Source: Marinitoga lauensis
GTDB taxonomy: Bacteria > Thermotogota > Thermotogae > Petrotogales > Petrotogaceae
Assembly: GCF_004135675.1 (NCBI RefSeq)
Contig: NZ_QHLX01000001.1
Coordinates: 310,001 to 374,000 of the forward strand
DNA: 64,000 nt
Direction: 5' to 3'
A program made the position numbers and the translations under genes. Numbering within the stretch: the stretch's first letter is position 1; the number at the start of each line of letters is the position of its first letter. This document shows, one piece after another, positions 11,200 through 32,421 of this stretch. The notes beneath the pieces were generated by a model. That model was given only the letters and a program-made list of their open reading frames with translations, was not told where the DNA came from and ran no database searches.

Positions 11200-12570
11200 T
11201 TAAAATCGCCAAATTGCTGTCAAAGGCAGGATATTAATTACTTCTTCTTCGTGTTTCTTTAAACTATATTGCAAAAGTTTTATATCGTTACTTATATCTT
11301 TTATTCTATTCTTTATTTTTTCAGTATTCAAACCAGCTTCTATTGCATCCATAAAACTTTCTTCTAATCTTTCTTTTCTCTTTTTCAACTTCGAAATTTC
11401 GTTTTTTATTTCATTAATTTTGGTTTTATTATTTTTATACTTAATAGAATTTATAGAATTGATTTTTTTTATTAAATCAGAAATTTCAATTTTTTCAAAT
11501 ACATCATTTAATAAAAAATCAATTACGAAACTTTCCACTTTTTCACGAGAAATAGAAATAAAATGATCATGTTTTTCATGATTTGTTATTTTCTTCTTCC
11601 AACTTGAACATACATATCTTGGGTACCTTCCACCAAATGCTATCATCTTTTCTCCACAAACTCCACAATATAATAAATTTTTTAATAAATATTTATGTTT
11701 TTTCTTTTTAACCCTGTTCCTCTTTTTCATTTTTTCTTGTACTTTATCCCATAATTCTTTTGATACTATTGCAGGAATAGCATTTTCTACTATTACAGCA
11801 TCATCTCTTTTTATATGAGAAGTTCTATGATTACCCCTTGCCCAAACATATGTACCTTTATATTTTGGATTGTGTAAAATATCATAGATTGTGCTATAAG
11901 ACCATTTTCCACCTTTTCTAGTTACAAAACCATGATTATTTAAATATTCTTCTATTTTTAAAGTTGAATAATCTTTTTCCGCTAATTCAAACATTAGTTT
12001 AACTACTTCAGCTTCTTTTTCATTTATAACATATTGTTTTCTAGGTATTTTCTTTACTCTTTCACCAAAGGAAATTTCTTCATATGTTTCTTCCACATCA
12101 TAGCCATATGGTGGAATACCTCCAAGAAAATAAGCTTTCTCTGCAGTAATTCTCACTTTAGTATTTATTTCATTTTTAAGATTCTTCAAATACCAATCAG
12201 CCACACTGGCCATAATATTAAAAATAAGATCACCAGATGCACCTGTTAAATCTTCTGATACAGAAAGCAAATCTACACCATATTGATTCAATTCTGCTTT
12301 ATACCAAGCAGCATCTTTTATATTTCTTGCAAATCTATCAATCTTATGGATAATAACAGCATCAAATTTTTTAGATTTAGCATCTCTAATCATCCTTTGA
12401 AATTCCGGTCTATCATCCGATTTTGCTGATCTTGCTCTATCAATATATTTTTCTACAATTTCATATCCGTTTTTTTCAGCATATTCTATTATAGCCCTTA
12501 ATTGTGCTTCAATAGAATCATCCGTTTGATTTTCACTTGAAAACCTTGCATATGCAGCAGCCTTTTTCAT
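11200..12570 (-). pseudogene. Large serine recombinase (phage integrase), truncated by IS B
   Basis: Integrase of the prophage. The N-terminal resolvase domain (about 1-150) has the catalytic Ser11 in YARFSS and conserved IHKIDRFARN; the recombinase domain (about 160-270) and a zinc ribbon (CGVCG near 315) follow, then a coiled coil. The native protein would be about 512 aa. IS B cuts it after residue 447, adding nine foreign residues (LPLTAIWRF). The lost C-terminal part carries the end of the coiled-coil region, which in serine integrases governs synapsis. Excision is therefore probably impaired. Confidence 0.9.
11231..11333. repeat. 103-bp target duplication of IS copy B, right copy
   Basis: Partner of 9199-9301; still in frame with the recombinase body. 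Confidence 0.88.
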
Positions 12571-15601: not shown

Positions 15602-15628
15602 AAAAAAACGAGACCCGAAAGGTCTCGT
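15602..15628 (-). terminator. Terminator after the HicBA-like pair
   Basis: Stem CGAGACC/GGTCTCG with a 5-nt loop at 15609-15627, followed on this strand by seven T. Confidence 0.85.
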
Positions 15629-15682
15629 TCAATTTTCACTATTATTAAATTTAAAGGTGTTATTTTTATTAAACATAAATAA

Positions 15683-15988: not shown

Positions 15989-16315
15989 GTAAAACACCCA
16001 TATGATTTCCAATATTATTTATTTTATTACTACTTTGTTTTGAAATCTTATTAGCCATGTGAGAAACTAACAACCCGTAAATAAACTGAATTCTTTCCAA
16101 CAAAGTATCTTTTCTTATAAAAGAATTTATTTTATTTCCATCATCTAAATCAAAAATTTCAGTTAAAGTTTTATCTAATTCATCAACTGCTTCATCAAGA
16201 GTTTTTCCGTATACCATAATAGTAGTATTTGTAATTCTAATATAATATAGTCCATCTTTTTATATACAATTACACCATCTTTTGAATTTTTGAATTTTAG
16301 TGCAAAATATACCAT
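15981..16315 (-). pseudogene. HicB-like antitoxin, one frameshift
   Basis: From ATG 16315 (GGGGTGAT site) the frame runs MVYFALKFKNSKDGVIVYKK; the second frame continues DGLYYIRITNTTIMVYGKTL. Together they give the HicB beta-strand core with the G-x-TLDEAVDEL helix. The break is at the five-T run 16257-16261 (one base short). About 111 aa when restored. An intact toxin beside a broken antitoxin would be lethal, so either slippage restores it, the toxin is silent, or the base is a read error. Confidence 0.65.
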
Positions 16316-16463
16316 ATCATCACCCCTTCGGGTTGTTTGGTAGTAATTTAGACTGGCAATTATAACAAATTGTTTTATATTTTATGTTAAATTATTCCCA
16401 TCTTTCATATTTCCCTACAATAAAAAATTTTAGTTGCTAATAATAATAGCGCAAACCCATATA

Positions 16464-16535
16464 ATGGCTCATGAACTGGCTCAGTATCTGGTTCAACATC
16501 TGGTTCACTATCAGGCTCAATTTTTGAACCAGTTA
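16464..16535. repeat. Iteron-like array 1, 12-bp period
   Basis: Consecutive 12-mers from 16464: ATGGCTCATGAA, CTGGCTCAGTAT, CTGGTTCAACAT, CTGGTTCACTAT, CAGGCTCAATTT, then an inverted half-unit (GAACCAG). In one frame it reads as a 4-residue linker repeat (SGSV SGST SGSL SGSI). Confidence 0.8.
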
Positions 16536-16547
16536 TATTTTTTATCT

Positions 16548-16595
16548 AACCGGTATCGCGGTTGCTATCGCGGGTGGTGTTGCGGGTGGTGTCGC
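16548..16595. repeat. Iteron-like array 2, 12-bp period
   Basis: Four consecutive 12-mers: AACCGGTATCGC, GGTTGCTATCGC, GGGTGGTGTTGC, GGGTGGTGTCGC. It is far more GC-rich than its surroundings and unlike arrays 1 and 3. Confidence 0.75.
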
Positions 16596-16619
16596 AATAT
16601 CAGACAGCGGAATGTAATA

Positions 16620-16691
16620 TTTTGCTACTCTCCGTTTACTGTCCCACCTACTCTCCCGTTTACTGTTTCATTTAGTGTTTGTCTGTGAAAC
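16620..16691. repeat. Iteron-like array 3, 12-bp period
   Basis: Units from 16632: CCGTTTACTGTC, CCACCTACTCTC, CCGTTTACTGTT, TCATTTAGTGTT, with a degenerate unit on each side. Reads in one frame as PFTV PPTL PFTV SFSV. Confidence 0.75.
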
Positions 16692-16740
16692 GCTAGAACG
16701 GAATACGTAGCTAAATTGTTTTGATTTTCCCTTTGCCATG

Positions 16741-16788
16741 CTAATTGGTGTGTTAGGTGCTGTGCCAGTTGGTGTGTCAATTATTGAC
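16741..16788. repeat. Iteron-like array 4, 12-bp period
   Basis: Units CTAATTGGTGTG, TTAGGTGCTGTG, CCAGTTGGTGTG and a degenerate fourth. A purine-rich A/G stretch (16827-16865) and then AT-only DNA follow, the order seen after iterons in lambda-type origins. Confidence 0.72.
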
Positions 16789-16860
16789 ACGGCATTTAAG
16801 TTTTTGCCTCGTCTTTTTGATATGGTTAAGAAAGAAAAGAAAAGAACCAAAAGAAAAGAA

Positions 16861-16920
16861 AGAATATATATAATAATATAATATAATATATAAATATATA
16901 ATATATATTTTTTTCTTTTT
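16861..16920. other. AT-only stretch, candidate DNA-unwinding element
   Basis: About 48 bases of pure A/T alternation (16865-16912) run into a pyrimidine-rich T/C tract to 16950. It lies between the iteron-like arrays. Easily melted DNA beside iterons is the usual make-up of a replication origin. No gene here; open frames over it are low-complexity. Confidence 0.55.
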
Positions 16921-17045
16921 TCTTTTTGCTTCTTTTTCTTTTTTCTTTTTTAAGTATACTGTGTAAAGTTTTTTCGATATTTTGCACTTTGGAATTCTTA
17001 CGAAAAAAAACAAACGCTTCCAATAAAAAAACATTAAAAATCCGG

Positions 17046-17065
17046 CTAAAATCAGGCGATTTTAG
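17046..17065. other. Small hairpin in the origin-like region
   Basis: CTAAAATC (17046-17053) pairs with GATTTTAG (17058-17065) around a 4-nt loop. 16951-17160 otherwise shows no gene and no repeat I can support. Confidence 0.4.
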
Positions 17066-17163
17066 GGCAGCTAAATGTATTTTTTGTATGATTTTATATC
17101 AAGGAAATTTTCAACGGTCTATAGGCTCAAATTTTAAATTTGAAAGTTTTTAATTTTTTTAAA

Positions 17164-17262
17164 AAAGTGTCTCATATAGATACGGTTTCTGAGACGGTTA
17201 GCAAAGTGTCTCAATATGAGACGGTAACTGAGACACTATCCGAGACACTTTCTGAGACGGTT
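17164..17262. repeat. Iteron-like array 5: copy of the initiator-gene array
   Basis: 99 bp matching 26763-26861 at all but two positions. Direct 12-mers at 17217, 17229, 17241 and 17253 (TGAGACGGTAAC, TGAGACACTATC, CGAGACACTTTC, TGAGACGGTTAG), another at 17190, and inverted GTGTCTCA at 17167 and 17206. Here the copy is non-coding. Confidence 0.92.
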
Positions 17263-17279
17263 AGCTAAGTATCCAATTA

Positions 17280-17348
17280 CCTGTTCATAATCCTGTTCGT
17301 GTTCCTGCTCATTTACCTGCTCATAATCCTGTTCATACATGAACACGT
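17280..17348. repeat. Iteron-like array 6, 12-bp period
   Basis: Five consecutive 12-mers: CCTGTTCATAAT, CCTGTTCGTGTT, CCTGCTCATTTA, CCTGCTCATAAT, CCTGTTCATACA, then an inverted TGAACA. It reads in one frame as PVHN PVRV PAHL PAHN. It ends about 10 bp from the repressor gene stop. Confidence 0.85.
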
Positions 17349-17356
17349 TACCTAGT

Positions 17357-17968
17357 TTATTCCCATACAACTTTACCAATAACTTTCCCTACGATAATTA
17401 ATTCTTCCCATTTTTCTTTAGGAATTACAATTGGTTCATATTTTGGATTTAAACTTATCAAATTAATGCTATTTTCGAATTGATAGAATTTTTTTATAAT
17501 TCCATCATCTCCATTTATTATAAATACTCCAATATCTCCATTTTCCAAGACATTTTGTTTCCTTACCAGAGCATAATCTCCATTATTATATGCAGGTTCC
17601 ATTGAATCTCCAACCACAATTAAACCAAAATCAACGTCTTTGTTTTGAGGTACAGGTAAATAATTTATTATGTTTTCATCAGCAAATATGCCATTTCCAG
17701 CGCTTACACTACCAACAATTGGAATAAATTTTGCAGGTATTACATTAGGCGGTAAATTGTCTTTACTTTTTCCTTCTTTTATTCCTAAAAGGTAATCGGT
17801 AGTTACATTAAAAAATTCAGCTATTACTTTAAGCATCTCAGGAGAAGGAGTAGCTCTACCGGTTTCATATGCAGAAATACTTTTTCTAGTTATATTTAAT
17901 TTTTTTGCTAATTCTTCCTGTGTTAAACCTAATTCCTGCCTTAACCTTTTTAATCTATCTTTAAGCAT
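17357..17968 (-). CDS. CI/LexA-like phage repressor with S24 domain
   Basis: Principal lysogeny repressor candidate (203 aa). HTH at about 14-35 (LTQEELAKKLNITRKSISAY). The C-terminal S24 domain has the cleavage pair A90-G91 in VGSVSAGNG, nucleophile Ser122 in GDSMEP and general-base Lys159, so RecA-stimulated self-cleavage and SOS induction are expected. Divergent from a Cro-like gene across a shared operator region. Confidence 0.9.
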   Translation of the reverse strand: MLKDRLKRLRQELGLTQEELAKKLNITRKSISAYETGRATPSPEMLKVIAEFFNVTTDYLLGIKEGKSKDNLPPNVIPAKFIPIVGSVSAGNGIFADENIINYLPVPQNKDVDFGLIVVGDSMEPAYNNGDYALVRKQNVLENGDIGVFIINGDDGIIKKFYQFENSINLISLNPKYEPIVIPKEKWEELIIVGKVIGKVVWE

Positions 17969-17989
17969 AATAATACCTCCACTATTGTC

Positions 17990-18160
17990 TAATGCTATTA
18001 TAATTAGATTTTTATTTCAAGTCAACTCAAGCCAAAACTAATAGCTATTAATTATTTTTTAATCAAAACTTAATTAGTTTTTAAATAAAAGCTATTGACA
18101 TTGGCTAAAATATTTGCTATTATTATTAGCGTAAGAGAAAATAAAAGCTATTTTAAATAC
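17990..18160. promoter_or_regulatory. Switch 1 operator and rightward promoter
   Basis: The half-site GCTATT recurs at about 17999, 18044, 18091, 18116 and 18148; 18039-18050 is the perfect palindrome TAATAGCTATTA. A strong rightward promoter, TTGACA (18095-18100), 17 bp, TATTAT (18118-18123), overlaps two sites. This fits CI/Cro control of the Cro-like gene. Confidence 0.75.
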
Positions 18161-18178
18161 CTAAAAGGAGGTGGAAAA

Positions 18179-18394
18179 ATGTCTTTAAAGAAAATTCAAG
18201 AACTACGATTAAAAAAGGGATTAAAACAAGAACAACTTGCTAATTTAGTTGGTATTTCAAGAAAATCTTTAAGTCATTACGAAACTGGTAGAGTTATACC
18301 ACCATTACCTGTAGCAATCAAAATAGCAAAAGCATTAGGAACAACGGTTGAAGAACTCTTTGATGACTATCATACACCATTAGCAAGGAGGTGA
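18179..18394 (+). CDS. Cro-like HTH regulator, switch 1
   Basis: 71 aa, almost only an XRE HTH (LKQEQLANLVGISRKSLSHY). ATG 18179 follows AAAGGAGGTG. First gene rightward of the CI-like repressor. Ends YHTPLARR, where its last bases form the ribosome site for the antirepressor. Confidence 0.85.
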   Translation: MSLKKIQELRLKKGLKQEQLANLVGISRKSLSHYETGRVIPPLPVAIKIAKALGTTVEELFDDYHTPLARR

Positions 18395-18398
18395 TGCA

Positions 18399-19096
18399 AT
18401 GAAAGAGTTAATTTCGATTAGTGAAAGTTTTTTTAGTGGAGAAAGAATTCAAACAGTAAATGCGCGAGAGTTACATGAGAAATTGAAAGTTGGAAGAGAT
18501 TTTAGCACTTGGATTAAACAAAGAATAGAGAAGTACGGATTTGTTGAAGGAATTGATTATATTTCAACGCTCACCAAAACGGGGAACGTCAAAATGTATT
18601 AAAAAAAGAATACTACATTTCATTAGATATGGCAAAAGAATTATGCATGGTTGAAAATAACGAATTAGGTAGAATGTTTAGAAAATATTTTATTGAGGTT
18701 GAAAAAAGATATAGAAAAATACAAACTCCAAAATTACCAAGGAATTATCTTGAAGCTCTAAAAGAATTAGTAAGAGTAGAAGAAGAAAGGCAAGCACTTG
18801 AAGCAGAAAATAAAAAGATAAGGCCCAAAGCAGAAGCATTTGATGAATTAATATCAACAGAGGGAAATTACACAATGTCTGAAGTAGCAAAAATATTAAA
18901 AAAGGGTAGAAATAGAATATTTAAGTTTTTAAGAATACAGGGAATACTCAGAAAAAACAATGAACCATATCAGGAATACGTAGATAGAGGATATTTTAAA
19001 CTAAGAACATATACAATAAAACATTCAAATTATGAAGAAGTTAAAGTTCAAACATTGGTTACCCGAAAGGTCTTGAGTGGATCAGAAAAATACTGA
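18399..19096 (+). pseudogene. AntA/KilAC phage antirepressor, one frameshift
   Basis: The first frame has the AntA/AntB domain (VNARELHEKLKVGRDFSTWI); the second resumes with EYYISLDMAKELCMVEN, a coiled coil and a KilAC-type C terminus (YTMSEVAKILKKGRNRIFKFL). The join is at the A4 run 18576-18579, one A short, giving about 232 aa. Antirepressors of this kind bind or displace repressor to trigger induction. Confidence 0.75.
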
Positions 19097-19115
19097 AAAG
19101 AGAGATTGAGTTTAT

Positions 19116-19478
19116 ATGAGAATAAAAGCTCTTTGGAAAGTGAATAAAAAAAATCCTGCTTCGCAGGAAGGAAAAAAGAAGAAGTTTTTTGTTTCAATAA
19201 AGATTAAGAAAGATATTATTTGCTCATGTGGAAATTCAGAATTTATATATTACGGAAAAATTCTGGATCCTAAAGTTAAACTACCTGTTGAAAAAAATAT
19301 TATACCTTATTTAAATAAATTTGCGTTAAAAGCTTTAAAGCTCTTCATTAAAGAAAATTCTTTAAACGTTTTGGTTTGCACTAAGTGCGGTAGTGTTCTC
19401 ACTGTCGATAAGAATTTTTTTGGGTTCATATTGCCAAATACTTTTGCCAAGAGAATCAGATTTAAGTTTTATATGTGA
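19116..19478 (+). CDS. Zinc-ribbon protein (120 aa)
   Basis: Begins MRIKALWKVNKKN and carries CSCG near residue 36 and CTKCG near 88, a spaced pair of knuckles. The first ten codons recur at 20813, so it belongs to a family of cassette genes in this region. The last ~115 bases overlap the convergent membrane-protein gene. Function unknown. Confidence 0.5.
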   Translation: MRIKALWKVNKKNPASQEGKKKKFFVSIKIKKDIICSCGNSEFIYYGKILDPKVKLPVEKNIIPYLNKFALKALKLFIKENSLNVLVCTKCGSVLTVDKNFFGFILPNTFAKRIRFKFYM

Positions 19479-19796
19479 AAGTTTATTTTTGGAAAGTATA
19501 TGGATTACTATTTTATAAACAATTAAAGCAAGTGCCAAAACAAAATCCCAATTATTTTTAAACAAAGAAAAAGTTTTATTAATATTAAAAGTTAATAAAG
19601 AAAAAGCAAATCCTAGTGCTATATCAGAAGTCACAGCTAAAATATTAGGCTTTGAAACCTCTTCAATTAAATTGTGGAGATCATTATAATCATCAACAAT
19701 TCTTAATAAATCTTTATTTTTGGGTTTCAAATTAGTAGCATCATCCCTATCAATACTAAAAGTAAGATGATTTTTATTTTTTTTCTTTTTGCCCAT
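19362..19796 (-). CDS. Two-segment membrane protein, switch 2 cassette (145 aa)
   Basis: Polar N terminus rich in Lys/Asn, then two hydrophobic segments at about 56-75 and 84-105. Start ATG 19796 behind AGGTAGTG; it overlaps the end of the zinc-ribbon gene upstream. The order repressor, zinc ribbon, membrane protein recurs in switch 3. Function unknown; a membrane-sited immunity or exclusion role is possible. Confidence 0.6.
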   Translation of the reverse strand: MGKKKKNKNHLTFSIDRDDATNLKPKNKDLLRIVDDYNDLHNLIEEVSKPNILAVTSDIALGFAFSLLTFNINKTFSLFKNNWDFVLALALIVYKIVIHILSKNKLSHIKLKSDSLGKSIWQYEPKKILIDSENTTALSANQNV

Positions 19797-20085
19797 TTTT
19801 ATCACTACCTATAACATTTCCAGTTTTTGGATCAACTAATCCTAAAGTTATCGCATTAAAAGGAACCATTGCTCCACACTTTTGACATGTAGCAATAATA
19901 GCAGGTATTAAAGAAGCTCCTTTTCCAATAACCAGATTACCTGAATTATATTCTCTTATTTCAAATAAAGTGCTGTTCCAAATTAATGAATTATTATGAC
20001 ATATAGGACATTTAGTTAAATCAATATTATTTTTTTTAGAAATTTCATTAAGTTTATTTAATAAAATTTTCTCATCAATTTTCAT
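19774..20085 (-). CDS. Zinc-ribbon protein, switch 2 cassette (103 aa)
   Basis: Cys pairs CPICH (about 26) and CQKCG (about 67) separated by ~40 residues, and a closing segment LGLVDPKTGNVIG that recurs as LGLIDPVTGELKK in the switch 3 homologue. It starts 2 bp after the HTH gene and overlaps the next gene. Unrecognised family; DNA, RNA or protein binding are all possible. Confidence 0.65.
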   Translation of the reverse strand: MKIDEKILLNKLNEISKKNNIDLTKCPICHNNSLIWNSTLFEIREYNSGNLVIGKGASLIPAIIATCQKCGAMVPFNAITLGLVDPKTGNVIGSDKNGQKEKK

Positions 20086-20087
20086 AG

Positions 20088-20429
20088 TTACATCTCCTCA
20101 GCAATTTGTTTAAGTTTTTCGGAAATATCAAGTAATTGTTGTTTAAGGTTTTTACTTTCAAGTGTTTCTAATTTTGACAATCGTTCTTTGACAAAGTCTG
20201 GTATTTCATTATCAAATGATTTAGGTATATCAGTTAATCCAAGAAGATAGTCAGTTGAGACATTTAACGCTTTTGCTATTTTTACTAAAATATCTGTTCT
20301 AATACCAATTCTTTTGCCGGATTCTATTTCAGAAAAAGTTGATTGACCAATACCAGCAAGTTTAGCTAATTCCTTTTGTTCTAAACCTTTAGAAATACGT
20401 ATTTCCTTTATTCTTTGTCCTAACAACAT
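20088..20429 (-). CDS. CI-like HTH repressor, switch 2
   Basis: About 113 aa from ATG 20429 (AAAGGGG site). XRE HTH at about 14-35 (LEQKELAKLAGIGQSTFSEI), the STDYLLGLTDIP linker typical of small phage repressors, then a helical tail. No S24 domain, so not self-cleaving. Likely binds the ATCGTA palindromes in front of it. Confidence 0.8.
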   Translation of the reverse strand: MLLGQRIKEIRISKGLEQKELAKLAGIGQSTFSEIESGKRIGIRTDILVKIAKALNVSTDYLLGLTDIPKSFDNEIPDFVKERLSKLETLESKNLKQQLLDISEKLKQIAEEM

Positions 20430-20455
20430 ATTATTTCCCCTTTCACAATAAAAAA

Positions 20456-20565
20456 TTATATCGAATAACCGATAAAAAGTCAACATAAATCGTAATAAAG
20501 AATTAACTATTTTTTTAATTGATTTTATATCGTAAGTACGATATAATAATATCGTAAAAACGAAA
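20456..20565. promoter_or_regulatory. Switch 2 operator region
   Basis: Perfect 18-bp palindrome ATATCGTAAGTACGATAT at 20527-20544 overlaps a rightward -10 TATAAT (20542-20547). Further ATCGTA or CGATA half-sites at about 20459, 20469, 20490 and 20549. The motif differs from those of switches 1 and 3. Confidence 0.72.
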
Positions 20566-20587
20566 CAAGAAAGGAGGTATCTTATTT

Positions 20588-20794
20588 ATGAATAGAATAA
20601 AAGAACTTAGAATTGAAAAGAATTTAACTCAAAAAGAACTTTCAGATTTATTAGGAATTGGACAATCCACATTAAGTGAAATTGAAAATGGAAAATATTT
20701 ACCAAGAATTGATTTAGCAAAAAAAATAGCAAAAATTCTTAATCACGATTTAGAGAAAGTTTTCCCAGAGGAATATGAACACGAGAAAGTATAG
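20588..20794 (+). CDS. Cro-like HTH regulator, switch 2
   Basis: 68 aa, a bare XRE HTH (LTQKELSDLLGIGQSTLSEI) ending KVFPEEYEHEKV. The recognition helix resembles that of the divergent repressor, as expected if both read the same operator. Ribosome site GGAGG at 20573. Confidence 0.8.
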   Translation: MNRIKELRIEKNLTQKELSDLLGIGQSTLSEIENGKYLPRIDLAKKIAKILNHDLEKVFPEEYEHEKV

Positions 20795-20812
20795 CAGAAA
20801 GAAGGTAGTGTG

Positions 20813-20881
20813 ATGCAGGCTCTTTGGAAAGTGAATAAAAAAAGGCTGCACAAGGCAACCGTAGAAATACTATTTTTTTGA
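20813..20881 (+). pseudogene. Remnant of the zinc-ribbon family start
   Basis: 22 codons, MQALWKVNKKRLHKATVEILFF. The first part copies the start of the 19116 gene at both DNA and protein level. It sits directly after the Cro-like gene, as its homologue sits after the antirepressor. Probably a deletion remnant. Confidence 0.4.
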
Positions 20882-20955
20882 ATCGGTATTTAATAAAAAA
20901 TTTTTCCCTATTTCCTTTGCAATGATTTTTTTATAATTTTCAAGGTCTTTTGGAG

Positions 20956-21372
20956 TTATCCCCTATCGCTAGATAATTCTGCTTGAGCATTTTTAAGATA
21001 ATATTCCATATCTTTAGCCAATAAATCAATATATCCAAGCATACGTGAGTTTTCGTTTGTAATTTTGTTAACCAAGTTAGGATGTGAATTATAAATGCCT
21101 ATAAATAAATTAACTAAGAAAAGAGCGATATATACGATCCATATAGAAATCCATTTTGGTTCAGAAGACACATATTGAATTACAATTGTTGGTACTCCAC
21201 TTAATGCAGAAAATACAATTATTTTTACCCAAGGAACAACAGGTTTATTTAGTAACTTCTTTATTTCATTACTAGATTCTTTAAGTTTTTCAAATTTTGT
21301 ATTTAAATCATTTAATTTTTCTACAGGCACAGAAAATGCTTTTACTTCAATTTTATGAACATTTGGTTTCAT
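20956..21372 (-). CDS. Two-segment membrane protein, switch 3 cassette (138 aa)
   Basis: Start ATG 21372 (MKPNVHKIEVKAFSVPVEKL) behind GGAGGT. N-terminal coiled coil (about 20-45), hydrophobic segments at about 49-68 and 76-95, polar C-terminal helix. It has the same place after a zinc ribbon as the switch 2 membrane protein, although the sequences are not obviously alike. Confidence 0.65.
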   Translation of the reverse strand: MKPNVHKIEVKAFSVPVEKLNDLNTKFEKLKESSNEIKKLLNKPVVPWVKIIVFSALSGVPTIVIQYVSSEPKWISIWIVYIALFLVNLFIGIYNSHPNLVNKITNENSRMLGYIDLLAKDMEYYLKNAQAELSSDRG

Positions 21373-21395
21373 AATATACCTCCGGAGGTGATTAT

Positions 21396-21662
21396 ATGGA
21401 TGGAGATCCAATGGGTTTCATAATTTTTCTAGTGGTAATGTTAGCTATTTTACTTGCAAATTTTATAGATTTAATAATGAGACTCAAAAAAGTAGAATCA
21501 GATATTAAAGAAGCAGAATTAAAATCAGGAAAAAGTATTTATAGTAAATATAGTTTCCAAGAATTATATCAAAGTATATTTATAGCCATCGGAGTAATAT
21601 TTACATTTTTCGTAGTAGCTTTATTTGTTTTTCTTCAACTCACCGGTTACGGGGTCAATTAA
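21396..21662 (+). CDS. Two-segment membrane protein (88 aa)
   Basis: MDGDPMGFIIFLVVMLAILL opens the first hydrophobic segment; a second lies near 65-85. It diverges from the gene at 21372 with only 23 bp between, and both use the palindrome ACCTCCGGAGGT (21379-21390) as ribosome site. It ends inside the convergent zinc-ribbon gene. Unrecognised; size and topology would suit a holin-like or exclusion protein. Confidence 0.55.
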   Translation: MDGDPMGFIIFLVVMLAILLANFIDLIMRLKKVESDIKEAELKSGKSIYSKYSFQELYQSIFIAIGVIFTFFVVALFVFLQLTGYGVN

Positions 21663-21899
21663 TCCTAAAACTAAAGCGTCATAAAATTCTGTATAACCAC
21701 AATTTTGGCATGTTTTTATCAAAAAAACTCTTTGACTACTTAACAAATCTATTGTTTTTCCAGTGTATTCTTGTATTCTAAAAATTTTAGGATCAAATTT
21801 TATATCATCACTATTACAGTTTTTACATTTTGGATTAATTTTACCTTCTATAATCAGATTATTTAGAATAGGCAATAATTCATCTTTTGTAAATTCCAT
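21621..21899 (-). CDS. Zinc-ribbon protein, switch 3 cassette (92 aa)
   Basis: CKNCN and CQNCG knuckles and the closing LGLIDPVTGELKK make it a diverged homologue of the 19774 gene. ATG 21899 (MEFTKDELLPIL) follows AAAGGAG. Confidence 0.65.
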   Translation of the reverse strand: MEFTKDELLPILNNLIIEGKINPKCKNCNSDDIKFDPKIFRIQEYTGKTIDLLSSQRVFLIKTCQNCGYTEFYDALVLGLIDPVTGELKKNK

Positions 21900-21921
21900 A
21901 TTATTCGCTCCTTTGGATTTA

Positions 21922-22248
21922 TTAAAGCTCATCAGCTAAATCATTTAATTTTTTAGCAATTTCTTTTAATTGAGATTTTATGTCTTTACTTTCAAGTGTT
22001 TCTAATTTTGATAATCGTTCTTTGACAAAGTCTGGGAGTTCGTTATCTTTATCAGTTAAACCAATTAAATAATCTAATGAAACATTAAAGTATTTAGCCA
22101 GTTTTTCTAAAGCAGTTAAAGTTGGTTCTCTTTGTCCGGATTCATATAAAGAAACAGCGGCAGAAGAGAAATTAAGATCACGTGCTAACTGTCTTTGAGA
22201 AATCCCTTTTTCTTCTCTAAGCTGTTTCAAACGTTCAGGAAAATTCAT
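21922..22248 (-). CDS. HTH regulator, second repressor of switch 3
   Basis: 108 aa, XRE HTH at about 16-37 (ISQRQLARDLNFSSAAVSLY). Its C-terminal tail (LPDFVKERLSKLETLESK) is nearly the same as that of the switch 2 repressor although the DNA-reading half differs, so domain swapping has occurred. Five bp after the first switch 3 repressor. Confidence 0.8.
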   Translation of the reverse strand: MNFPERLKQLREEKGISQRQLARDLNFSSAAVSLYESGQREPTLTALEKLAKYFNVSLDYLIGLTDKDNELPDFVKERLSKLETLESKDIKSQLKEIAKKLNDLADEL

Positions 22249-22252
22249 ATTT

Positions 22253-22594
22253 TCACCTATCTAACAACTCAGCTAATTCTATAATTTTCTTAGCAATGTT
22301 TTTTAATTGTTTTGAAATATCTTCTTCTTTGATTATATTGAGTTTTTGTAATTCTTTTGAAAGGTATTCAGGAATTTCATTATTTAAAGTTGGTATGTCA
22401 GATAGTCCAAGCAAATAATCAGCAGAAACATCTAAAACAATAGCAATTTTCTTTATCATCTCTGCTGTTGGTTGCTTAAGATTTTTTTCATATTCAGAAA
22501 TTAAAGACTGTGAAGTTTCACATTTTGTAGCTAATTCTTTTTGTGTAATTTTTTTTAATTTTCTTAATTCTTTTAATCTTTCGCCAAAAGTCAT
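22253..22594 (-). CDS. CI-like HTH repressor, switch 3
   Basis: 113 aa from ATG 22594 (AAAGGGG site). HTH at about 16-37 (ITQKELATKCETSQSLISEY), VSADYLLGLSDIP linker and helical tail. No S24 domain. First gene leftward of the third operator region. Confidence 0.8.
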   Translation of the reverse strand: MTFGERLKELRKLKKITQKELATKCETSQSLISEYEKNLKQPTAEMIKKIAIVLDVSADYLLGLSDIPTLNNEIPEYLSKELQKLNIIKEEDISKQLKNIAKKIIELAELLDR

Positions 22595-22619
22595 ATTTAA
22601 CCCCTTTCTGATTATATTA

Positions 22620-22760
22620 TACACGTTATAGCGATAATTTTCAAGTTTATTTTAATAATATCGCAATAATTATTTTACTTTTTCTTAATTGTATAAATAT
22701 CGCTTATGCGTTATAATAATTATAGCGATATAAAAAAATAAAATATAAAAAAGCGATATA
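22620..22760. promoter_or_regulatory. Switch 3 operators and rightward promoter
   Basis: TATAGCGATA-type sites at 22627, 22721 and 22750 and the inverse ATATCGC at 22658 and 22698. Rightward promoter TTGTAT (22689-22694), 17 bp, TATAAT (22712-22717), overlapped by sites. The motif is specific to this switch. Confidence 0.72.
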
Positions 22761-22772
22761 GGAGGTGATGTA

Positions 22773-22982
22773 ATGAAAAATAGAATTAGAGAACTTAGAA
22801 AATCAAAAAGATTAACAACTGTTGAATTAGCAAATATAGCAGAAATTTCTCAATCATATTTAAGCGAACTTGAGCAAGGTTTGAAAACACCAACAATACC
22901 AATAGCAAGAAGAATAGCCAAAGCTTTAGGTTGTGAATTAAATGATGTTTTCCCAGAGGAATATGAACATTCGAAAGTATAG
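22773..22982 (+). CDS. Cro-like HTH regulator, switch 3
   Basis: 69 aa, XRE HTH (LTTVELANIAEISQSYLSEL) with the same ending as the switch 2 Cro-like protein (DVFPEEYEHSKV). GGAGGTGAT precedes it. Confidence 0.8.
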   Translation: MKNRIRELRKSKRLTTVELANIAEISQSYLSELEQGLKTPTIPIARRIAKALGCELNDVFPEEYEHSKV

Positions 22983-23025
22983 CAGAAAGGGGTGGTGGTG
23001 ATGCAGGATGGGAGGAGGTGTAAAT

Positions 23026-23220
23026 ATGAAAACACAAAAATGGACAATCCCTATAGAGAAATTGCCCGAATTTACGAAGGTTCTTAAAGCATACACAGAA
23101 TTAACAAATACAAAAGAATTAGAAATTGATATTGAATTTGAAAACGAAGAAGAGAAAATAAAAAATTTTGGTGATCTTATACATGCAATATCTACAAGAG
23201 GTATAAAAATAAAAGATTAA
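23026..23220 (+). CDS. Small acidic protein (64 aa)
   Basis: MKTQKWTIPIEKLPEFTKVL; ATG 23026 follows GGAGGAGGTG. No membrane segment or motif recognised. It follows the Cro-like gene and so is probably early and rightward. Confidence 0.55.
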   Translation: MKTQKWTIPIEKLPEFTKVLKAYTELTNTKELEIDIEFENEEEKIKNFGDLIHAISTRGIKIKD

Positions 23221-23600
23221 AGAATTTTCATATTATTTTTATCAGTAAAAATAACAACAAAATTTGTTCCTGGAAATTTTTCTTTTAAAAGTTCAATATA
23301 CAAATCTACTTTATCCTTATCATCAAGTTTTTTAATTAAATCAAAGATTAAGTTTTCATGTTTTGGATTTACCAATTTATTAATTAGAATGACATCAATC
23401 ATATTCAATAAAATAGAAAATACATTTTCATTTTTAGCTATAAATTCTATTACTGGAAACCTTACTTCTTCATATGAAGTAACTGGATCTGAAACTTTTG
23501 AAACAATTCCTTGATGTAATCCAAATTTTTTTAATTCATTTATTAACGCTTGATCAACATTTTTACTAGGAATTACTAAAATGTATTTTTCACTACTCAT
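23217..23600 (-). CDS. Unknown soluble protein (127 aa)
   Basis: Convergent with the small acidic gene (4-bp overlap). MSSEKYILVIPSKNVDQALI behind GGGGG. Mixed alpha/beta composition, no transmembrane segment, no motif I recognise. Lone leftward gene between two rightward blocks, so it may be lysogeny-expressed. Confidence 0.6.
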   Translation of the reverse strand: MSSEKYILVIPSKNVDQALINELKKFGLHQGIVSKVSDPVTSYEEVRFPVIEFIAKNENVFSILLNMIDVILINKLVNPKHENLIFDLIKKLDDKDKVDLYIELLKEKFPGTNFVVIFTDKNNMKIL

Positions 23601-23675
23601 AATATCATCCCCCTTATCAAAATATCATTAATATTTTAATACAAAATTTTAAAATTTCAAAACGGAGGTGATGCA

Positions 23676-23849
23676 ATGGAATTAAAAGTAAGCGAAAAAG
23701 AAGCAGCGGTAATTAACGGGATATTTTGGCTTATGGAACATCCAGAAATTATTGAGAAGTATAACTCAAAATCTAGAAAGAATGTGGAAAAAGATGAATC
23801 AAAAAGAAAAGATATTCAAACCAAAGAAAAAGTTTCTAGTTCTAGCTAA
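23676..23849 (+). CDS. Small charged protein (57 aa)
   Basis: MELKVSEKEAAVINGIFWLM, then a Lys/Ser-rich tail. ATG 23676 is preceded by GGAGGTGATGC. First gene of the rightward early block. Family unknown. Confidence 0.55.
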   Translation: MELKVSEKEAAVINGIFWLMEHPEIIEKYNSKSRKNVEKDESKRKDIQTKEKVSSSS

Positions 23850-23884
23850 TATTTGGTTCATTTTGGAAGAAGGGAGTGAAAAAA

Positions 23885-24085
23885 ATGGAAAAACTTCATC
23901 CGATAGGAGTAGCGTTATTTCAAAATCCAAAAACAAGAGAATATCTTATTAATCTTGTAAAGCAGAGGAGGGAAGGAAATGGGGGCAACAAGAACAGTGA
24001 TGATATCAGGAGTACCGATTCAGAAACTAATAGCGGAAAACTCAAACAGCATAGCGAACGCATTTTTCATAAAACAATTACTTGA
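23885..24085 (+). CDS. Small protein (66 aa), overlaps next gene
   Basis: MEKLHPIGVALFQNPKTREY from ATG 23885 behind AAGGGAG. The second half overlaps the next gene by 107 bp in another frame and looks non-natural (Ser/Asn/Asp-rich); a lost base near 23970 may have carried the frame past its true stop. Function unknown. Confidence 0.45.
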   Translation: MEKLHPIGVALFQNPKTREYLINLVKQRREGNGGNKNSDDIRSTDSETNSGKLKQHSERIFHKTIT

Positions 24086-24437
24086 AAGGTTTGAGATGTA
24101 TGAAGATATTGAAGATGAACTCAAAGAAAAGATTAAAAGTTGGATACATGATTCTCCTGAACCGTATCGCAGTAGATTCAAAGAAATATTACAAACTATC
24201 CAGAAAATTGATAAACCACAAGATGAAATAACAATGCTAATACTTTTTAGAGCAGTTCAGATAGAAACAGAAAATCGTAAAAGTAATGGAATACTAAAGT
24301 TCTTTGACATCAAAGGTCCATATCAAAAATGGAGGATTAGAGAAGGTAGAAAAAGATACAGAGAAGAGCAGCAAAGGCTAATTGGATTACCTTTTATTAA
24401 AAAGGAAACCCGCACCAAAAAGGTGCAGGTGGGGTAG
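23979..24437 (+). CDS. Unknown protein of the early block (152 aa)
   Basis: GAGGAGGGAAGGAA then MGATRTVMISGVPIQKLIAE. Helical, charged; basic C-terminal half (WRIREGRKRYREEQQRLIG). Position just before the nuclease and annealing-type protein suggests replication or recombination use, without further evidence. Confidence 0.55.
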   Translation: MGATRTVMISGVPIQKLIAENSNSIANAFFIKQLLERFEMYEDIEDELKEKIKSWIHDSPEPYRSRFKEILQTIQKIDKPQDEITMLILFRAVQIETENRKSNGILKFFDIKGPYQKWRIREGRKRYREEQQRLIGLPFIKKETRTKKVQVG

Positions 24438-24520
24438 ATGGGGTTTCTACCATTCCTTATTTTTGCAGTGTAATTATACCATAAAAATTTGAAATTTGAA
24501 AACAATAGGAGGGAGAAAAG

Positions 24521-25585
24521 ATGAATAAATTAGCACCTTATTCCATGAGTAGATTAACCGAATACGAAAGATGTCCAAAGAGGTTTCGATTTAAGTATAT
24601 AGATAAATTACCGGAATTAGTTGGAGATGAAGGATTTAAAGGAATAAAAATACATGAAGCTATAGCTAATGCGTTAAAAGGAAAAGATTATAAAAACATT
24701 TTAGCTGAAATTGCTTTTGATGATATTAGAGATGCAGAATATATGGTTAAAAGTGCAGTGAAACACAGTAAAAATCTTGGAAAAATATTAGGAATTGAAA
24801 CAAAATTTGGAATAACTCAAAAAGGTGAATTAACAGATTTCTTTTCTAAAGATGTTTGGCTAAGAGGGGTTGCAGATTTAATTACTACTCAAGATGGAAA
24901 AACTTTAGAAGTTTGGGATTGGAAAACTGGTCATAGTACTCCTACTAAATTTCAAGTTTTCTTGTATGCATGGGCAATAAGTATAGCTTTACAAAGACCA
25001 GTAACTAGAGTTGGATATATAATGCTTAATTCTAATGATATTTTAATTTTTGATGTAACTTCTGAAGATTTATAAATTACTGTTAATAAACTATATAAAT
25101 TAGTAAATTCCATAGAAACAGATACCAAATTCACTCCTAAACCTGGCAGACATTGTGCGTTTTGTTCATATGTAAGTATGTGTCCATTAGTAAATCAGAT
25201 TGAATCAAAAGATATTCCAACTATTTTAAATGATGAAGATGCTGTGAAAATTTATAAAGAAGTAATTGTATTAAAAGAGTTGGTAAAGAATAGAGAGAAA
25301 GCTTTAAAAGAGTATGTAAAATCAAAGCCTGAAGGTGCTGTGAAAATTGATGAAAATAAAGTATATAAACTTACTTATTCAGAAACTATAACTAAAAAAC
25401 GCGGAATAAATAAAGATGAATTAAAGAAATTTATATGGGAATTTGCAGAAAAAAATAATTTGGATCCTTTAATTTATTTTGATTTAGACAATAAAAAACT
25501 AGAACCATTAATAATTGAAGGTGTCTTGAAAGATTATTTCACTATATCAAAAAGAAAGAGTTTTGTATTAGAGGAGGTGGAGTAA
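24521..25585 (+). pseudogene. PD-(D/E)XK exonuclease with Fe-S cluster motif, split by an in-frame stop
   Basis: RecB/Cas4-type nuclease. N-terminal Cys in TEYERCPKRF, then the active-site stretch GVADLI...LEVWDWKTG (residues about 114-136), QVFLYAWAI helix, and the C-terminal cluster HCAFCSYVSMCPL. A TAA at 25073-25075 interrupts the frame; the same frame is open on both sides (355 codons in all), so this is a substitution rather than a slip. The stop separates the catalytic core from three of the four cluster Cys. In phages such nucleases pair with annealing proteins in recombination. Confidence 0.78.
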
Positions 25586-26401
25586 ATGCCAGCTATTGAA
25601 AAAAAGAACCTATGGGAAATTGAATCAATTGAAGAATTTAGTAAAAATACTGGTTATAACATAGATTTTAAAGCATTAGAAGAGGCAAAAAGAAAAATGA
25701 AGAAACAAACCGAATACGGTGAAGTTGAATTAAATGTTTATGAAGGATTGGTAATACAAAAGCTTTTCGAATATTTTAGATTTGGTATTTTTGAAAACAT
25801 TTCCAGAATGATGAAACAACAAGATGCACATACATCATTAAATGAAGTAAAAATGATTTTATTAGAGATGGCACGCTATGAGATAGAATATGGCCTTAAA
25901 CCACTCTTACATACACTTCCAATAGCTAAAAAGATTTATATAACTGCTGAAGGTTTTTTATACTATGCTCAAACCAAAGGAAATATAAAAACTATTGATT
26001 ATGAAACATCAGAAATAAAACCGGGATTATATAAAACTATATGTACTGTTACAACAAATGATGGAAAAACTCAAAAAGGATATGCAACTGTAAAAGCTAC
26101 AGGAAATAAAATGGATGATCCAGAAGAAAGAAGCCGCACTAAAGCATTAAGACGAGCATTAAGGAGACTTTATCCAATAGGTGCTATGTATGAAGAAGCA
26201 TATATTGAAAATCCAGAGTCCATTACGATACCTGAAATACCATCAATACCTGCAGTTCCTGAGGTTCAAAATGTACAAAATGATAAAGAAGAGCAGATTA
26301 AAGATTCCAAGAAAGAAGAAAAAGAGGAAAACAACAAAGAAGAACCAGCAGATACATTATTTGATCTCCAAAATAATTTGGTAAATAAAGTATTTGATTG
26401 A
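25586..26401 (+). CDS. Putative single-strand annealing recombination protein (271 aa)
   Basis: Follows the nuclease directly (GGAGGTGG inside its end). The region GYATVKATGNKMDDPEERSR and TKALRRALRR resembles the conserved end of phage annealing-type proteins; an acidic Pro/Glu-rich tail follows (about 215-265), as in SSB-interacting proteins. The family assignment rests mainly on neighbourhood (nuclease before, SSB after) and is tentative. Confidence 0.5.
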   Translation: MPAIEKKNLWEIESIEEFSKNTGYNIDFKALEEAKRKMKKQTEYGEVELNVYEGLVIQKLFEYFRFGIFENISRMMKQQDAHTSLNEVKMILLEMARYEIEYGLKPLLHTLPIAKKIYITAEGFLYYAQTKGNIKTIDYETSEIKPGLYKTICTVTTNDGKTQKGYATVKATGNKMDDPEERSRTKALRRALRRLYPIGAMYEEAYIENPESITIPEIPSIPAVPEVQNVQNDKEEQIKDSKKEEKEENNKEEPADTLFDLQNNLVNKVFD

Positions 26402-26405
26402 TTTT

Positions 26406-26431
26406 AGGGGTGCCCCCTGCCCCCTTTTTTA
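26406..26431 (+). terminator. C-rich hairpin before the initiator gene
   Basis: AGGGG (26406-26410) can pair with CCCCT (26421-26425), followed by six T. Striking in such AT-rich DNA. Weak as a terminator. Confidence 0.35.
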
Positions 26432-26462
26432 AAAATGTCGTAATTTTAAAGAGGTGAAATAC

Positions 26463-27299
26463 ATGCAAATTGCCACAGTTTTTAGCCGGTTTTGGCGAGA
26501 TCGTCTGGATTGGGAACTTAGCGATTCTGAGATTGCTTTATTCTTTGCTATTTTGGCCGAAATTAACAGGACAAGGGGAGAGAATAACAATCTCTTGGAA
26601 TCCAGGATCTCAATCGGGACTCCCAAGCTGGAATTGTTAGCTGGCATATCTAGAGCAGAAGTATATAGAGCAAGAAATAGACTAAAGCAGTATGGATTAA
26701 TTGATTTTATTAGTGGGAAAGGGAAAAAGAATTATGCAACTTATTCTTTGGGTAAAGTATTTAAAGTGTCTCATATAGATACAGTTTCTGAGACGGTTAG
26801 CAAAGTGTCCCAATATGAGACGGTAACTGAGACACTATCCGAGACACTTTCTGAGACGGTTTCTGCAACACTTCCTGAGACACGTTATAAGAATATAGAA
26901 TATAGAGAAGAGAATATAGAAAAAAATAAAAAGAGTATAGTCCCTCAACAAGTTGAAGGACCACCGCACACTCCGTATAAAAAAATTATTGAATTATATC
27001 ATACATATTGTCCTTCACTTCCTAGAGTAAAGGTTTTAAATGAAACTAGGAAAAAATATATTAAAGCACGATGGAAAGAATACCCAGATTTGAAATTTTG
27101 GGAACAGTATTTCCAAAGTGTTGAAGAATCAGACTTTTTAACAGGAAGAGCAGATTATGGTAATAGAAACCCTTTTATTGCTGATCTCGAATGGTTAATG
27201 AGACCAAATAATTTTGCAAAAGTTATTGAGGGGAAATATAACAACAGGGGAATTGTAGGAACTATTGATGAGGAAATAAAAAGCCTTCTGAGGAGATGA
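26463..27299 (+). CDS. DnaD-like replication initiator with internal repeat array
   Basis: About 278 aa from ATG 26463 (GAGGTGAAAT). N-terminal winged-helix domain (1-95: FWRDRLDWELSDSEIALFFA, ISRAEVYRARNRLKQYGLID). Residues ~100-145 are a 4-residue repeat (SETV, TETL, SETL) because the DNA is a 12-bp-period array. The C-terminal part (about 160-270) resembles the DnaD/DnaB-like segment of phage initiators with a FWEQYFQSVE core. As in lambda O, the origin probably lies inside the gene. Confidence 0.75.
   Translation: MQIATVFSRFWRDRLDWELSDSEIALFFAILAEINRTRGENNNLLESRISIGTPKLELLAGISRAEVYRARNRLKQYGLIDFISGKGKKNYATYSLGKVFKVSHIDTVSETVSKVSQYETVTETLSETLSETVSATLPETRYKNIEYREENIEKNKKSIVPQQVEGPPHTPYKKIIELYHTYCPSLPRVKVLNETRKKYIKARWKEYPDLKFWEQYFQSVEESDFLTGRADYGNRNPFIADLEWLMRPNNFAKVIEGKYNNRGIVGTIDEEIKSLLRR
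26763..26898. repeat. Iteron array inside the initiator gene
   Basis: 12-mers TGAGACGGTTAG, TGAGACGGTAAC, TGAGACACTATC, CGAGACACTTTC, TGAGACGGTTTC, TGCAACACTTCC, TGAGACACGTTA, with two inverted GTGTCTCA/GTGTCCCA units. 99 bp are copied at 17164-17262. A purine-rich A/T stretch follows (26885-26940), as downstream of iterons in lambda-type origins. Confidence 0.85.
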
Positions 27300-32225: not shown

Positions 32226-32260
32226 TCGACAAACATCGACAAGTTTCGACAATGTTCGAC
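32226..32260. repeat. Four 10-bp-period TCGACA repeats
   Basis: TCGAC at 32226, 32236, 32246 and 32256, spaced exactly 10 bp. The last unit touches the tRNA 5' end. Candidate protein-binding array. Confidence 0.75.
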
Positions 32261-32334
32261 AGGATATGGTGTTAATGGTAGCATACCACACTTGGGATGT
32301 GGTGGTACAGGTTCGAATCCTGCTATCCTGACCA
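32260..32334 (+). tRNA. tRNA-Pro (anticodon TGG)
   Basis: 7-bp acceptor CAGGATA/TATCCTG, anticodon stem CCACA/TGTGG with loop CTTGGGA (anticodon TGG, G at 37 as usual for Pro), T-arm CAGG-TTCGAAT-CCTG, discriminator A and encoded CCA. It is in the prophage, between the late promoter and the terminase genes. Confidence 0.88.
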
Positions 32335-32358
32335 GTTTCTTCCCTCCTTTGAAATAAA

Positions 32359-32418
32359 TGCCGGAAAAGTGCCGGAAACTGCCGGATTAATGCCGGATAG
32401 TGCCGGAAAGATGCCGGA
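32359..32418. repeat. Six helically phased TGCCGGA repeats (candidate packaging site)
   Basis: TGCCGGA starts at 32359, 32370, 32380, 32391, 32401 and 32412: spacing alternates 11 and 10, so all sites lie on one face of the helix. It is 270 bp before terS. A small-terminase ring binding such an array would be typical of a pac or cos region. Confidence 0.7.
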
Positions 32419-32421
32419 ATT

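What the first reader, a model, noticed from the sequence alone, without database searches (positions are those of the whole stretch)
17164..26861. 99-bp initiator iteron block duplicated 9.6 kb away
17164-17262 and 26763-26861 differ at two positions only. In the gene the bases encode an ETV/ETL repeat; at 17 kb they are non-coding but still nearly unchanged, so DNA function rather than protein sequence seems to be kept. Flanking bases are unrelated. Both copies contain direct and inverted GAGAC units, which would allow looping or handcuffing by the initiator.
Basis: seen in the sequence. Interest (0 to 1): 0.75.

Follow-up and report, generated by a model that had tools for sequence, protein, structure and literature searches.

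The report
Prophage bank of rival phage origins
Next to its repressor gene, this bacterial virus carries a non-coding stretch packed with copies of the replication start sites of at least six kinds of virus, its own and its competitors', which suggests a DNA-only way of capturing a rival's replication machinery.

Summary
The 99-bp duplication is real: 97/99 identical, direct, 9,599 bp apart, only these two copies in the host genome. The 17-kb copy is one of at least six 12-bp-period arrays in a ~1.1-kb non-coding locus (16220-17356) downstream of the CI-like repressor of a Marinitoga prophage. Four arrays match iteron arrays inside the initiator genes of different Marinitoga phages (own, MCV2, MCV1, MPV1); two more read as initiator fragments from unknown phages. 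Homologous banks in MCV1 and MCV2 also contain each other's, MPV1's and their own iterons. MCV1 and MCV2 are 97-99% identical around the initiator but have exchanged exactly its N-terminal domain plus iterons, and their bank arrays are hypervariable (13.6% versus 1.5% substitutions in flanks, plus large indels). Initiator N-terminus and iteron type co-vary; the C-terminus does not. Best reading: a natural multi-target initiator-capture locus (origin decoys, possibly an accessory origin), like 'phage-encoded resistance' origins but multi-specific. Anatomy is well supported; function is inferred (about 0.5). Main rivals: biased recombination debris, a pure accessory origin, self-control, antisense RNA. 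No such bank was found near the repressor in three relatives.

The parts
16220..17356 (.). Non-coding bank of initiator iteron arrays, between the gene ending at 16217 and the repressor gene
   Evidence: No credible ORF; six 12-bp-period arrays; matches to initiator genes of several Marinitoga phages; homologous banks in MCV1 and MCV2
16392..16418 (-). Relic of a repressor 3' end at the left edge of the bank module
   Evidence: 27/27 bp identical to the 3' end of the repressor gene in genome G002 / MPV1 (G002:C2:308752-308778)
16465..16543 (-). MCV2-type array (EPxxEPxx reading; GARCCWG units every 12 bp)
   Evidence: 86% over 79 bp to the MCV2 initiator gene; 94% over 78 bp to the MCV2 bank
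16546..16627 (-). MCV1-type array (CGNRACACYACC units)
   Evidence: 78% over 51 bp to the MCV1 initiator gene, 12-bp periodicity beyond it
16624..16721 (-). X-type array, donor phage unknown
   Evidence: 12-bp period; reads NLATYSVLAFHRQTLNETVNGRVGGTVNGE, like NYATYSLGKVF...ETV of the window initiator (inspection); no donor found
16742..16805 (-). MPV1-type array with a perfect inverted pair GTGTCAATAATTGACAC
   Evidence: 78% over 60 bp to the MPV1 initiator gene
16820..16960 (.). AT-rich, strand-asymmetric inverted-repeat block (possible unwinding element, or a bidirectional terminator)
   Evidence: Inverted repeat, 58-nt arms 71% complementary; RNA fold z -6.5, DNA fold z -4.8; similar block in MCV1 and MCV2
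17164..17262 (+). Own (GAGAC) type array: the non-coding copy of the finding
   Evidence: 97/99 identical to 26763-26861, both differences synonymous
17272..17350 (-). EQ-type array, donor phage unknown
   Evidence: 12-bp period; starts with TGTTCATGTATGAACA; reads LGNVFMYEQDYEQVNEQEHEQDYEQVIGYL; no donor found
17357..17968 (-). CI/LexA-like repressor gene (HTH_3 + Peptidase_S24)
   Evidence: Pfam and PHROG hits; its transcription would run leftward towards the bank
26463..27299 (+). Initiator gene: chimaera of a G004-like N-terminal part plus GAGAC iterons and an MCV1/MCV2-like C-terminal part
   Evidence: phrog_19658, E 3e-46; 26448-26857 86% to G004, 26887 onward 79% to MCV1/MCV2
26763..26883 (+). 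In-gene iteron array (copy 2 of the finding is 26763-26861); AT-rich stretch follows

Best explanation
The 17-kb copy is one element of a non-coding bank of initiator-binding arrays in the immunity region of a Marinitoga prophage. Each array is a fragment of a phage initiator gene: the end of the winged-helix coding region, an inverted half-site pair, and several 12-bp direct iterons. Most foreign types are known from other phages of the genus. Proposed mechanism: when another phage's initiator appears in the cell, by superinfection or induction of a second prophage, its N-terminal domain binds its cognate array in the resident prophage. The initiator is thereby diverted from the rival's own origin. 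Because the arrays flank an AT-rich block like the AT arm of lambda-type origins, capture may also fire local replication, which would multiply the decoy. Phages would escape by exchanging the initiator N-terminus plus iterons as a cassette. Shown: anatomy, foreign identity of the arrays, fast turnover, co-variation of N-terminus and iterons, a clean cassette swap between sibling phages. Inferred: binding, diversion, firing and fitness effect.
For: (a) Bank arrays match iteron arrays inside initiator genes of several phages: MCV1 bank 94%/101 bp to MCV2, 90%/78 bp to itself, 94%/70 bp to MPV1; MCV2 bank 89%/71 bp to G004, 91%/66 bp to MCV1, 92%/64 bp to MPV1; window bank 98%/99 bp to itself, 86%/79 bp to MCV2, 78% to MCV1 and MPV1. 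(b) The array region is only about 0.3% of a phage genome, yet every identified fragment comes from it; no bank array has another hit below E 0.03 in the whole MPV1 genome. (c) Initiator N-terminus and iteron type co-vary while the C-terminus is exchanged. (d) MCV1 and MCV2, 97-99% identical on both sides, differ exactly in the N-terminus plus iteron cassette, the pattern that origin-directed antagonism selected in PLE satellites (PMC8263062). (e) Bank arrays turn over fast between siblings and gain whole arrays while flanks stay at 1.5%. (f) Location beside the repressor, in a module bounded by a repressor 3'-end relic. (g) Ectopic lambda origins stop lambda (PMC4488673); a non-coding phage origin protects S. 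thermophilus (PMC6356513 citing Foley 1998).
Against: No binding, transcription or phenotype data. A prophage is a single copy, whereas published origin decoys were on multicopy plasmids (20-40 copies in PMC4488673). All three banks also carry the phage's own type, which a pure weapon would not need. Only three banks are known and two belong to sibling phages. The window's MCV1-type and MPV1-type arrays have drifted to 78%, so they may not bind the known initiators. MPV1, the G004 prophage and L103 do without a bank at this place.
Confidence: 0.5

Rival explanations
1. Biased recombination debris: iteron arrays are repeat-rich and exposed at origins, so phage annealing recombinases paste them next to one another at short homologies; the locus has no function.
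For: Junctions share short homologies (ACACTA|AAAATG; CGCAAC/AACCG). MCV1 and MCV2 carry annotated RecT genes. Units expand and shrink between siblings.
Against: Fragments come only from iteron regions and keep the inverted pair plus direct iterons; foreign arrays share one orientation; the locus always lies next to the repressor; the immediate flanks are nearly invariant.
Confidence: 0.2
2. Accessory or piggyback origin without interference: the arrays plus the AT block are a multi-specific origin, so the prophage is replicated by whichever initiator is present, its own included.
For: AT-rich strand-asymmetric block next to the arrays, conserved in three banks; own-type arrays in all three banks; most arrays point the same way relative to the block. 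The plasmid of the MPV1 host is amplified on induction (PMC11921389) and has a weak MCV2-type match in a non-coding region.
Against: The AT block lies on the opposite side of the iterons from the AT-rich stretch in the genes; the hairpin could equally be a terminator; no replication data.
Confidence: 0.15
3. Self-control only: the own copy titrates or handcuffs the phage's own initiator.
For: Own-type arrays in all three banks; the window's own copy is the best preserved (97/99).
Against: Does not explain the foreign arrays, which outnumber the own one.
Confidence: 0.07
4. Antisense RNA: read-through from the repressor makes RNA complementary to initiator mRNA.
For: For the window's own array a leftward repressor transcript would be antisense to the initiator mRNA over 99 nt.
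Against: Foreign arrays in all three banks lie the other way round, so the same transcript would be sense; promoter-like sites are at chance (13 found, 12.4 expected); identities of 78-86% are poor for long pairing.
Confidence: 0.05
5. Silent cassettes: the bank is a reservoir from which initiator genes import new iterons.
For: Initiator cassettes are evidently exchanged between phages.
Against: The exchanged unit includes the whole N-terminal domain, which the bank lacks; importing iterons alone would break self-recognition.
Confidence: 0.03

Closest known systems
Phage-encoded resistance (PER) / non-coding origin element of S. thermophilus phage phiSfi21 (Foley 1998, as cited in PMC6356513)
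   Same: Non-coding phage DNA with origin-like repeats; proposed to bind an incoming phage's replication protein
   Different: PER is a single origin effective in raised copy number; here arrays of at least six specificities are collected in a prophage at single copy, and resistance is untested
Ectopic lambda-origin decoys (PMC4488673)
   Same: Iterons outside the initiator gene compete for the initiator
   Different: An artificial multicopy plasmid with one origin; here a natural multi-target locus
P1 incA and E. coli datA titration loci (own knowledge for incA; datA in PMC5010248)
   Same: Non-coding clusters of initiator sites away from the origin
   Different: They act on the element's own initiator; most arrays here belong to other phages' initiators
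PLE / ICP1 origin-directed nuclease (PMC8263062)
   Same: Conflict between mobile elements over origin iterons; the DNA-binding domain plus origin is swapped as a module
   Different: There a nuclease attacks iterons; here a DNA bank carries them and no nuclease is implied
CRISPR arrays (own knowledge; analogy only)
   Same: A locus that collects short pieces of several competitors' genomes and turns over quickly
   Different: No repeats separating the pieces; the pieces always come from the same functional site; no guide RNA is implied

Membership tests
Lambda-O / DnaD-like initiator with origin inside its gene (window 26463-27299) | Sequence family of phage replication initiators | tested here: met
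   phrog_19658 E 3e-46, phrog_345 (O-like) 3e-31, phrog_10469 (DnaD-like) 4e-29
Lambda-O / DnaD-like initiator with origin inside its gene (window 26463-27299) | N-terminal DNA-binding domain followed by iterons in the coding sequence and an AT-rich arm | tested here: met
   Winged-helix-like order of elements over residues about 11-94 at moderate confidence; iterons begin just after it; AT-rich stretch follows; fold matches not significant
Lambda-O / DnaD-like initiator with origin inside its gene (window 26463-27299) | Initiator binds the iterons and starts replication there | not testable with these tools
   Only co-variation of N-terminus and iteron type
PER-type origin element | Non-coding phage DNA carrying iterons recognised by another phage's initiator | tested here: inconclusive
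   Sequence identity to several foreign in-gene arrays; binding not tested
PER-type origin element | Lowers the yield of phages with the matching origin | not testable with these tools
   -
PER-type origin element | Raised copy number or replication driven by the infecting phage | not testable with these tools
   Single chromosomal copy here; the AT block makes firing possible only
Iteron handcuffing / incA self-control | Second cluster carries the element's own iterons | tested here: met
   97/99 own copy in the window; own types also in MCV1 and MCV2 banks
Iteron handcuffing / incA self-control | Cluster is dedicated to the own initiator | tested here: not met
   Five of six arrays in the window bank are of other types
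Diversity-generating retroelement (template and variable repeat) | Differences fall on template adenines | tested here: not met
   Differences are G/A and T/C with no adenine in the non-coding copy
CRISPR array | Identical repeats between unique spacers | tested here: not met
   Segments are contiguous without a common separating repeat

The most novel reading that the evidence does not exclude
A protein-free, updatable memory of competitors: temperate phages keep, beside the repressor, a growing bank of rivals' origin iterons that captures the rivals' initiators, and rivals escape by swapping the initiator's DNA-binding domain together with its iterons.
Probability: 0.4. Interest if true: 0.92.

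Novelty: new variant of a known kind. Interest (0 to 1): 0.8.

Why it matters
Origin decoys have been made in the laboratory, and single origin elements are known to confer resistance. A natural multi-target bank of foreign origins in the immunity region would be a new layer of phage-phage exclusion that needs no protein. It would also explain why sibling phages exchange exactly the initiator's DNA-binding domain plus iterons. It makes a directly testable prediction: bank content should predict which phages a lysogen excludes or is amplified by. Such loci are missed by gene-based defence searches because they are non-coding.

Tried and rejected
DGR template/variable repeat: rejected. Structured RNA family: only two tRNAs in the window. 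Antisense RNA as a general explanation: orientation contradicts it and promoters are at chance. Plasmid relatives: none in PLSDB. Donors of the EQ and X arrays: not found in 41 relative genomes; the EQ donor was also not found in phage records or IMG/VR. An IMG/VR hit to the MCV2-type pattern (L208) is a coincidental Gly/Ser repeat; GAGAC pattern hits L217 and L219 are unrelated GC-richer repeats. Further banks next to repressors of other Thermotogota prophages: none by period or by match. One genome contigs pattern scan gave nothing. GC skew at 17-18 kb follows gene direction and says nothing about an origin. Shuffle test on the plasmid of the MPV1 host: 0/200 and 4/200 shuffles reach the real score for the MCV1 and MCV2 banks, 91/200 for the window bank; kept only as a lead. 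An automatic palindrome score missed half-sites with unmatched centres, so inverted pairs are described by eye. The p-value is for an interval chosen after looking and on repeats that can be realigned, so it is descriptive.
Full report
OBSERVATION. The two 99-bp blocks are as described: 97/99 identical, same strand, 9,599 bp apart, and the only full copies in the 2.6-Mb assembly. The 26.8-kb copy is inside a phage initiator gene, the 17-kb copy in a non-coding stretch of about 1.1 kb downstream of a CI/LexA-like repressor. Both differences are synonymous in the gene.

HOST. The nearest phages are Marinitoga camini viruses 1 and 2 (MCV1, MCV2) and Marinitoga phage MPV1. The genomes carrying MCV1 (G005) and MPV1 (G002, 100% identical initiator) are in the same genus as the window's genome, so the host is a Marinitoga (Thermotogota). 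The window prophage carries a serine recombinase at 11200-12570.

THE 17-KB LOCUS IS A BANK. Tandem-repeat search shows five more 12-bp-period arrays around the reported copy, at 16465-16521, 16570-16592, 16626-16664, 16745-16776 and 17280-17337. Comparison with initiator genes of other Marinitoga phages identifies three of them: 16465-16543 is the MCV2 array (86% over 79 bp), about 16546-16627 the MCV1 array (78% over 51 bp), about 16742-16805 the MPV1 array (78% over 60 bp). The other two (X and EQ) have no known donor. They do read as initiator fragments in the same place of the protein, NLATYS... and LGNVF..., compared with NYATYSLGKVF... in the window initiator.

HOMOLOGOUS BANKS. The gap between the two repressors of MCV1 contains, back to back, arrays of the MCV2 initiator (94% over 101 bp), MCV1's own initiator (90% over 78 bp) and the MPV1 initiator (94% over 70 bp). 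MCV2's corresponding region contains its own type, a GAGAC-type array (89% over 71 bp to the G004 prophage initiator, 85% to the window initiator), MCV1-type and MPV1-type. Searched against 50,697 phage records, the MCV1 bank hits only Marinitoga phages, and in MPV1 only the initiator array, E 2e-21. Against the whole MPV1 genome no bank array has another hit below E 0.03. No bank lies next to the repressor of MPV1 or of the G004 prophage, none was seen in the L103 contig, and none by period or match next to other repressors examined.

ARCHITECTURE OF THE UNITS. In sense orientation nearly every array starts with two inverted half-sites about 7 bp apart (GGTTC-N7-GAACC, GTGTC-N7-GACAC, and so on) followed by direct half-sites every 12 bp. 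This arrangement is preserved in bank copies, in one case as a better palindrome than in the known gene (GTGTCAATAATTGACAC in the window's MPV1-type array). Foreign arrays left of the AT block have the same orientation in all three banks. The window's own array lies on the other side of an AT-rich hairpin block (16820-16960, RNA z -6.5) in the opposite orientation, so its 5' end also faces the block. The EQ array is the exception.

INITIATOR SPECIFICITY IS A SWAPPED CASSETTE. The part of the initiator before the array and the array type go together; the part after the array does not. Window and G004: 91% before, 32% after, same GAGAC iterons. Window and MCV1/MCV2: 33-38% before, 77-79% after, different iterons. 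MCV1 and MCV2: 30% before, 96% after, different iterons. At DNA level MCV1 and MCV2 are 99.3% identical for 5.2 kb up to the cassette and 97.4% for 2.3 kb after it. The window gene is itself a chimaera: 26448-26857 like G004 (86%), 26887 onward like MCV1/MCV2 (79%). A model of the initiator shows a winged-helix-like order of elements over residues about 11-94 and no confident structure for the array-encoded part; structural matches are wHTH proteins, some of them Rep proteins, but none is significant.

TURNOVER. Between the sibling phages MCV1 and MCV2 the flanks of the bank differ at 18/1207 sites, the arrays at 27/198 sites plus 159 gap columns, including one whole GAGAC array present only in MCV2. 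Part of this is unit rearrangement rather than point change, and the interval was chosen after looking, so the p-value (4e-13) is descriptive. The bank module is bounded on the left in the window by a 27-bp relic of a repressor 3' end; a similar repressor 3'-end sequence sits at the left edge of the MCV1/MCV2 banks. This suggests that bank plus repressor moves as an immunity module.

MECHANISM. The most economical functional reading is that these are binding sites for foreign and own initiators. Binding would divert initiators from their own origins; with the AT block, local firing is possible. Ectopic lambda origins arrest lambda (PMC4488673). The phiSfi21 non-coding origin element protects against many phages and acts as an origin activated by infection (PMC6356513, citing Foley 1998). 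Antagonism aimed at origins is reported to select for swapping of the DNA-binding domain plus origin in PLE satellites (PMC8263062), the same pattern as MCV1/MCV2. Steps shown: foreign identity of the arrays, architecture, turnover, cassette swap. Steps inferred: binding, diversion, firing, fitness effect. The strongest objections are the single copy of a prophage, the presence of own-type arrays, and the small sample (three banks, about two lineages). A recombination hot spot that collects repeat arrays without function cannot be excluded and gets 0.2.

VERDICT. Observation confirmed; handcuffing by the own initiator is not the main story. The finding is a multi-specific bank of phage origin iterons in a prophage immunity region. 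Its building principle (origin decoy or PER element) is known; a natural multi-target bank was not found in the literature searched. That library holds only open-licence papers, so this is weak evidence of absence.

Noticed in passing
L211 (G002:C1, 13,386-bp plasmid of the MPV1 host, taken to be pMP1), 11329-11457: A non-coding stretch resembles MCV2-type iterons (81% over 53 bp) and, about 40 bp on, a 39-bp element at the right end of the MCV1/MCV2 banks (87%). It could be a plasmid origin sharing elements with the banks; significance is borderline.
   Followed up: partly
MCV1 KP836355 53171..153 and MCV2 KP836356 7811-8215: Clean swap of initiator N-terminus plus iterons between two otherwise 97-99% identical phages.
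   Followed up: yes
L008 6660-6700 and L081 9830-9870 (left part of the MCV1/MCV2 banks): A further short 12-bp array (GAACATGAAACG units, 'Y type') with no known donor, absent from the window bank.
   Followed up: partly
window 15606-15630: GAGAC/GTCTC inverted repeat (aacgagacccgaaaggtctcgtt), a terminator-like hairpin; a similar one lies beside the MPV1 repressor. It accounts for part of the GAGAC count and is unrelated to the iterons.
   Followed up: no
window 17041-17066 (and the right end of the MCV1/MCV2 banks): Imperfect palindrome CTAAAATCAGGCGATTTTAG, similar to TTAAATCGCCTAATTTTAG in MCV1/MCV2 and GACGATTTAAGG in the plasmid; possibly another conserved element of the locus.
   Followed up: no
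window 20088-22982: Two copies of a divergent HTH-regulator pair (repeats D2-D4, 67-79% identical): a duplicated regulator module beside the main repressor.
   Followed up: no
window 32356-32419: Tandem TGCCGGAAA repeats just downstream of tRNA-Pro (32260-32334) inside the prophage; MPV1 carries a tRNA-Pro at the corresponding place.
   Followed up: no
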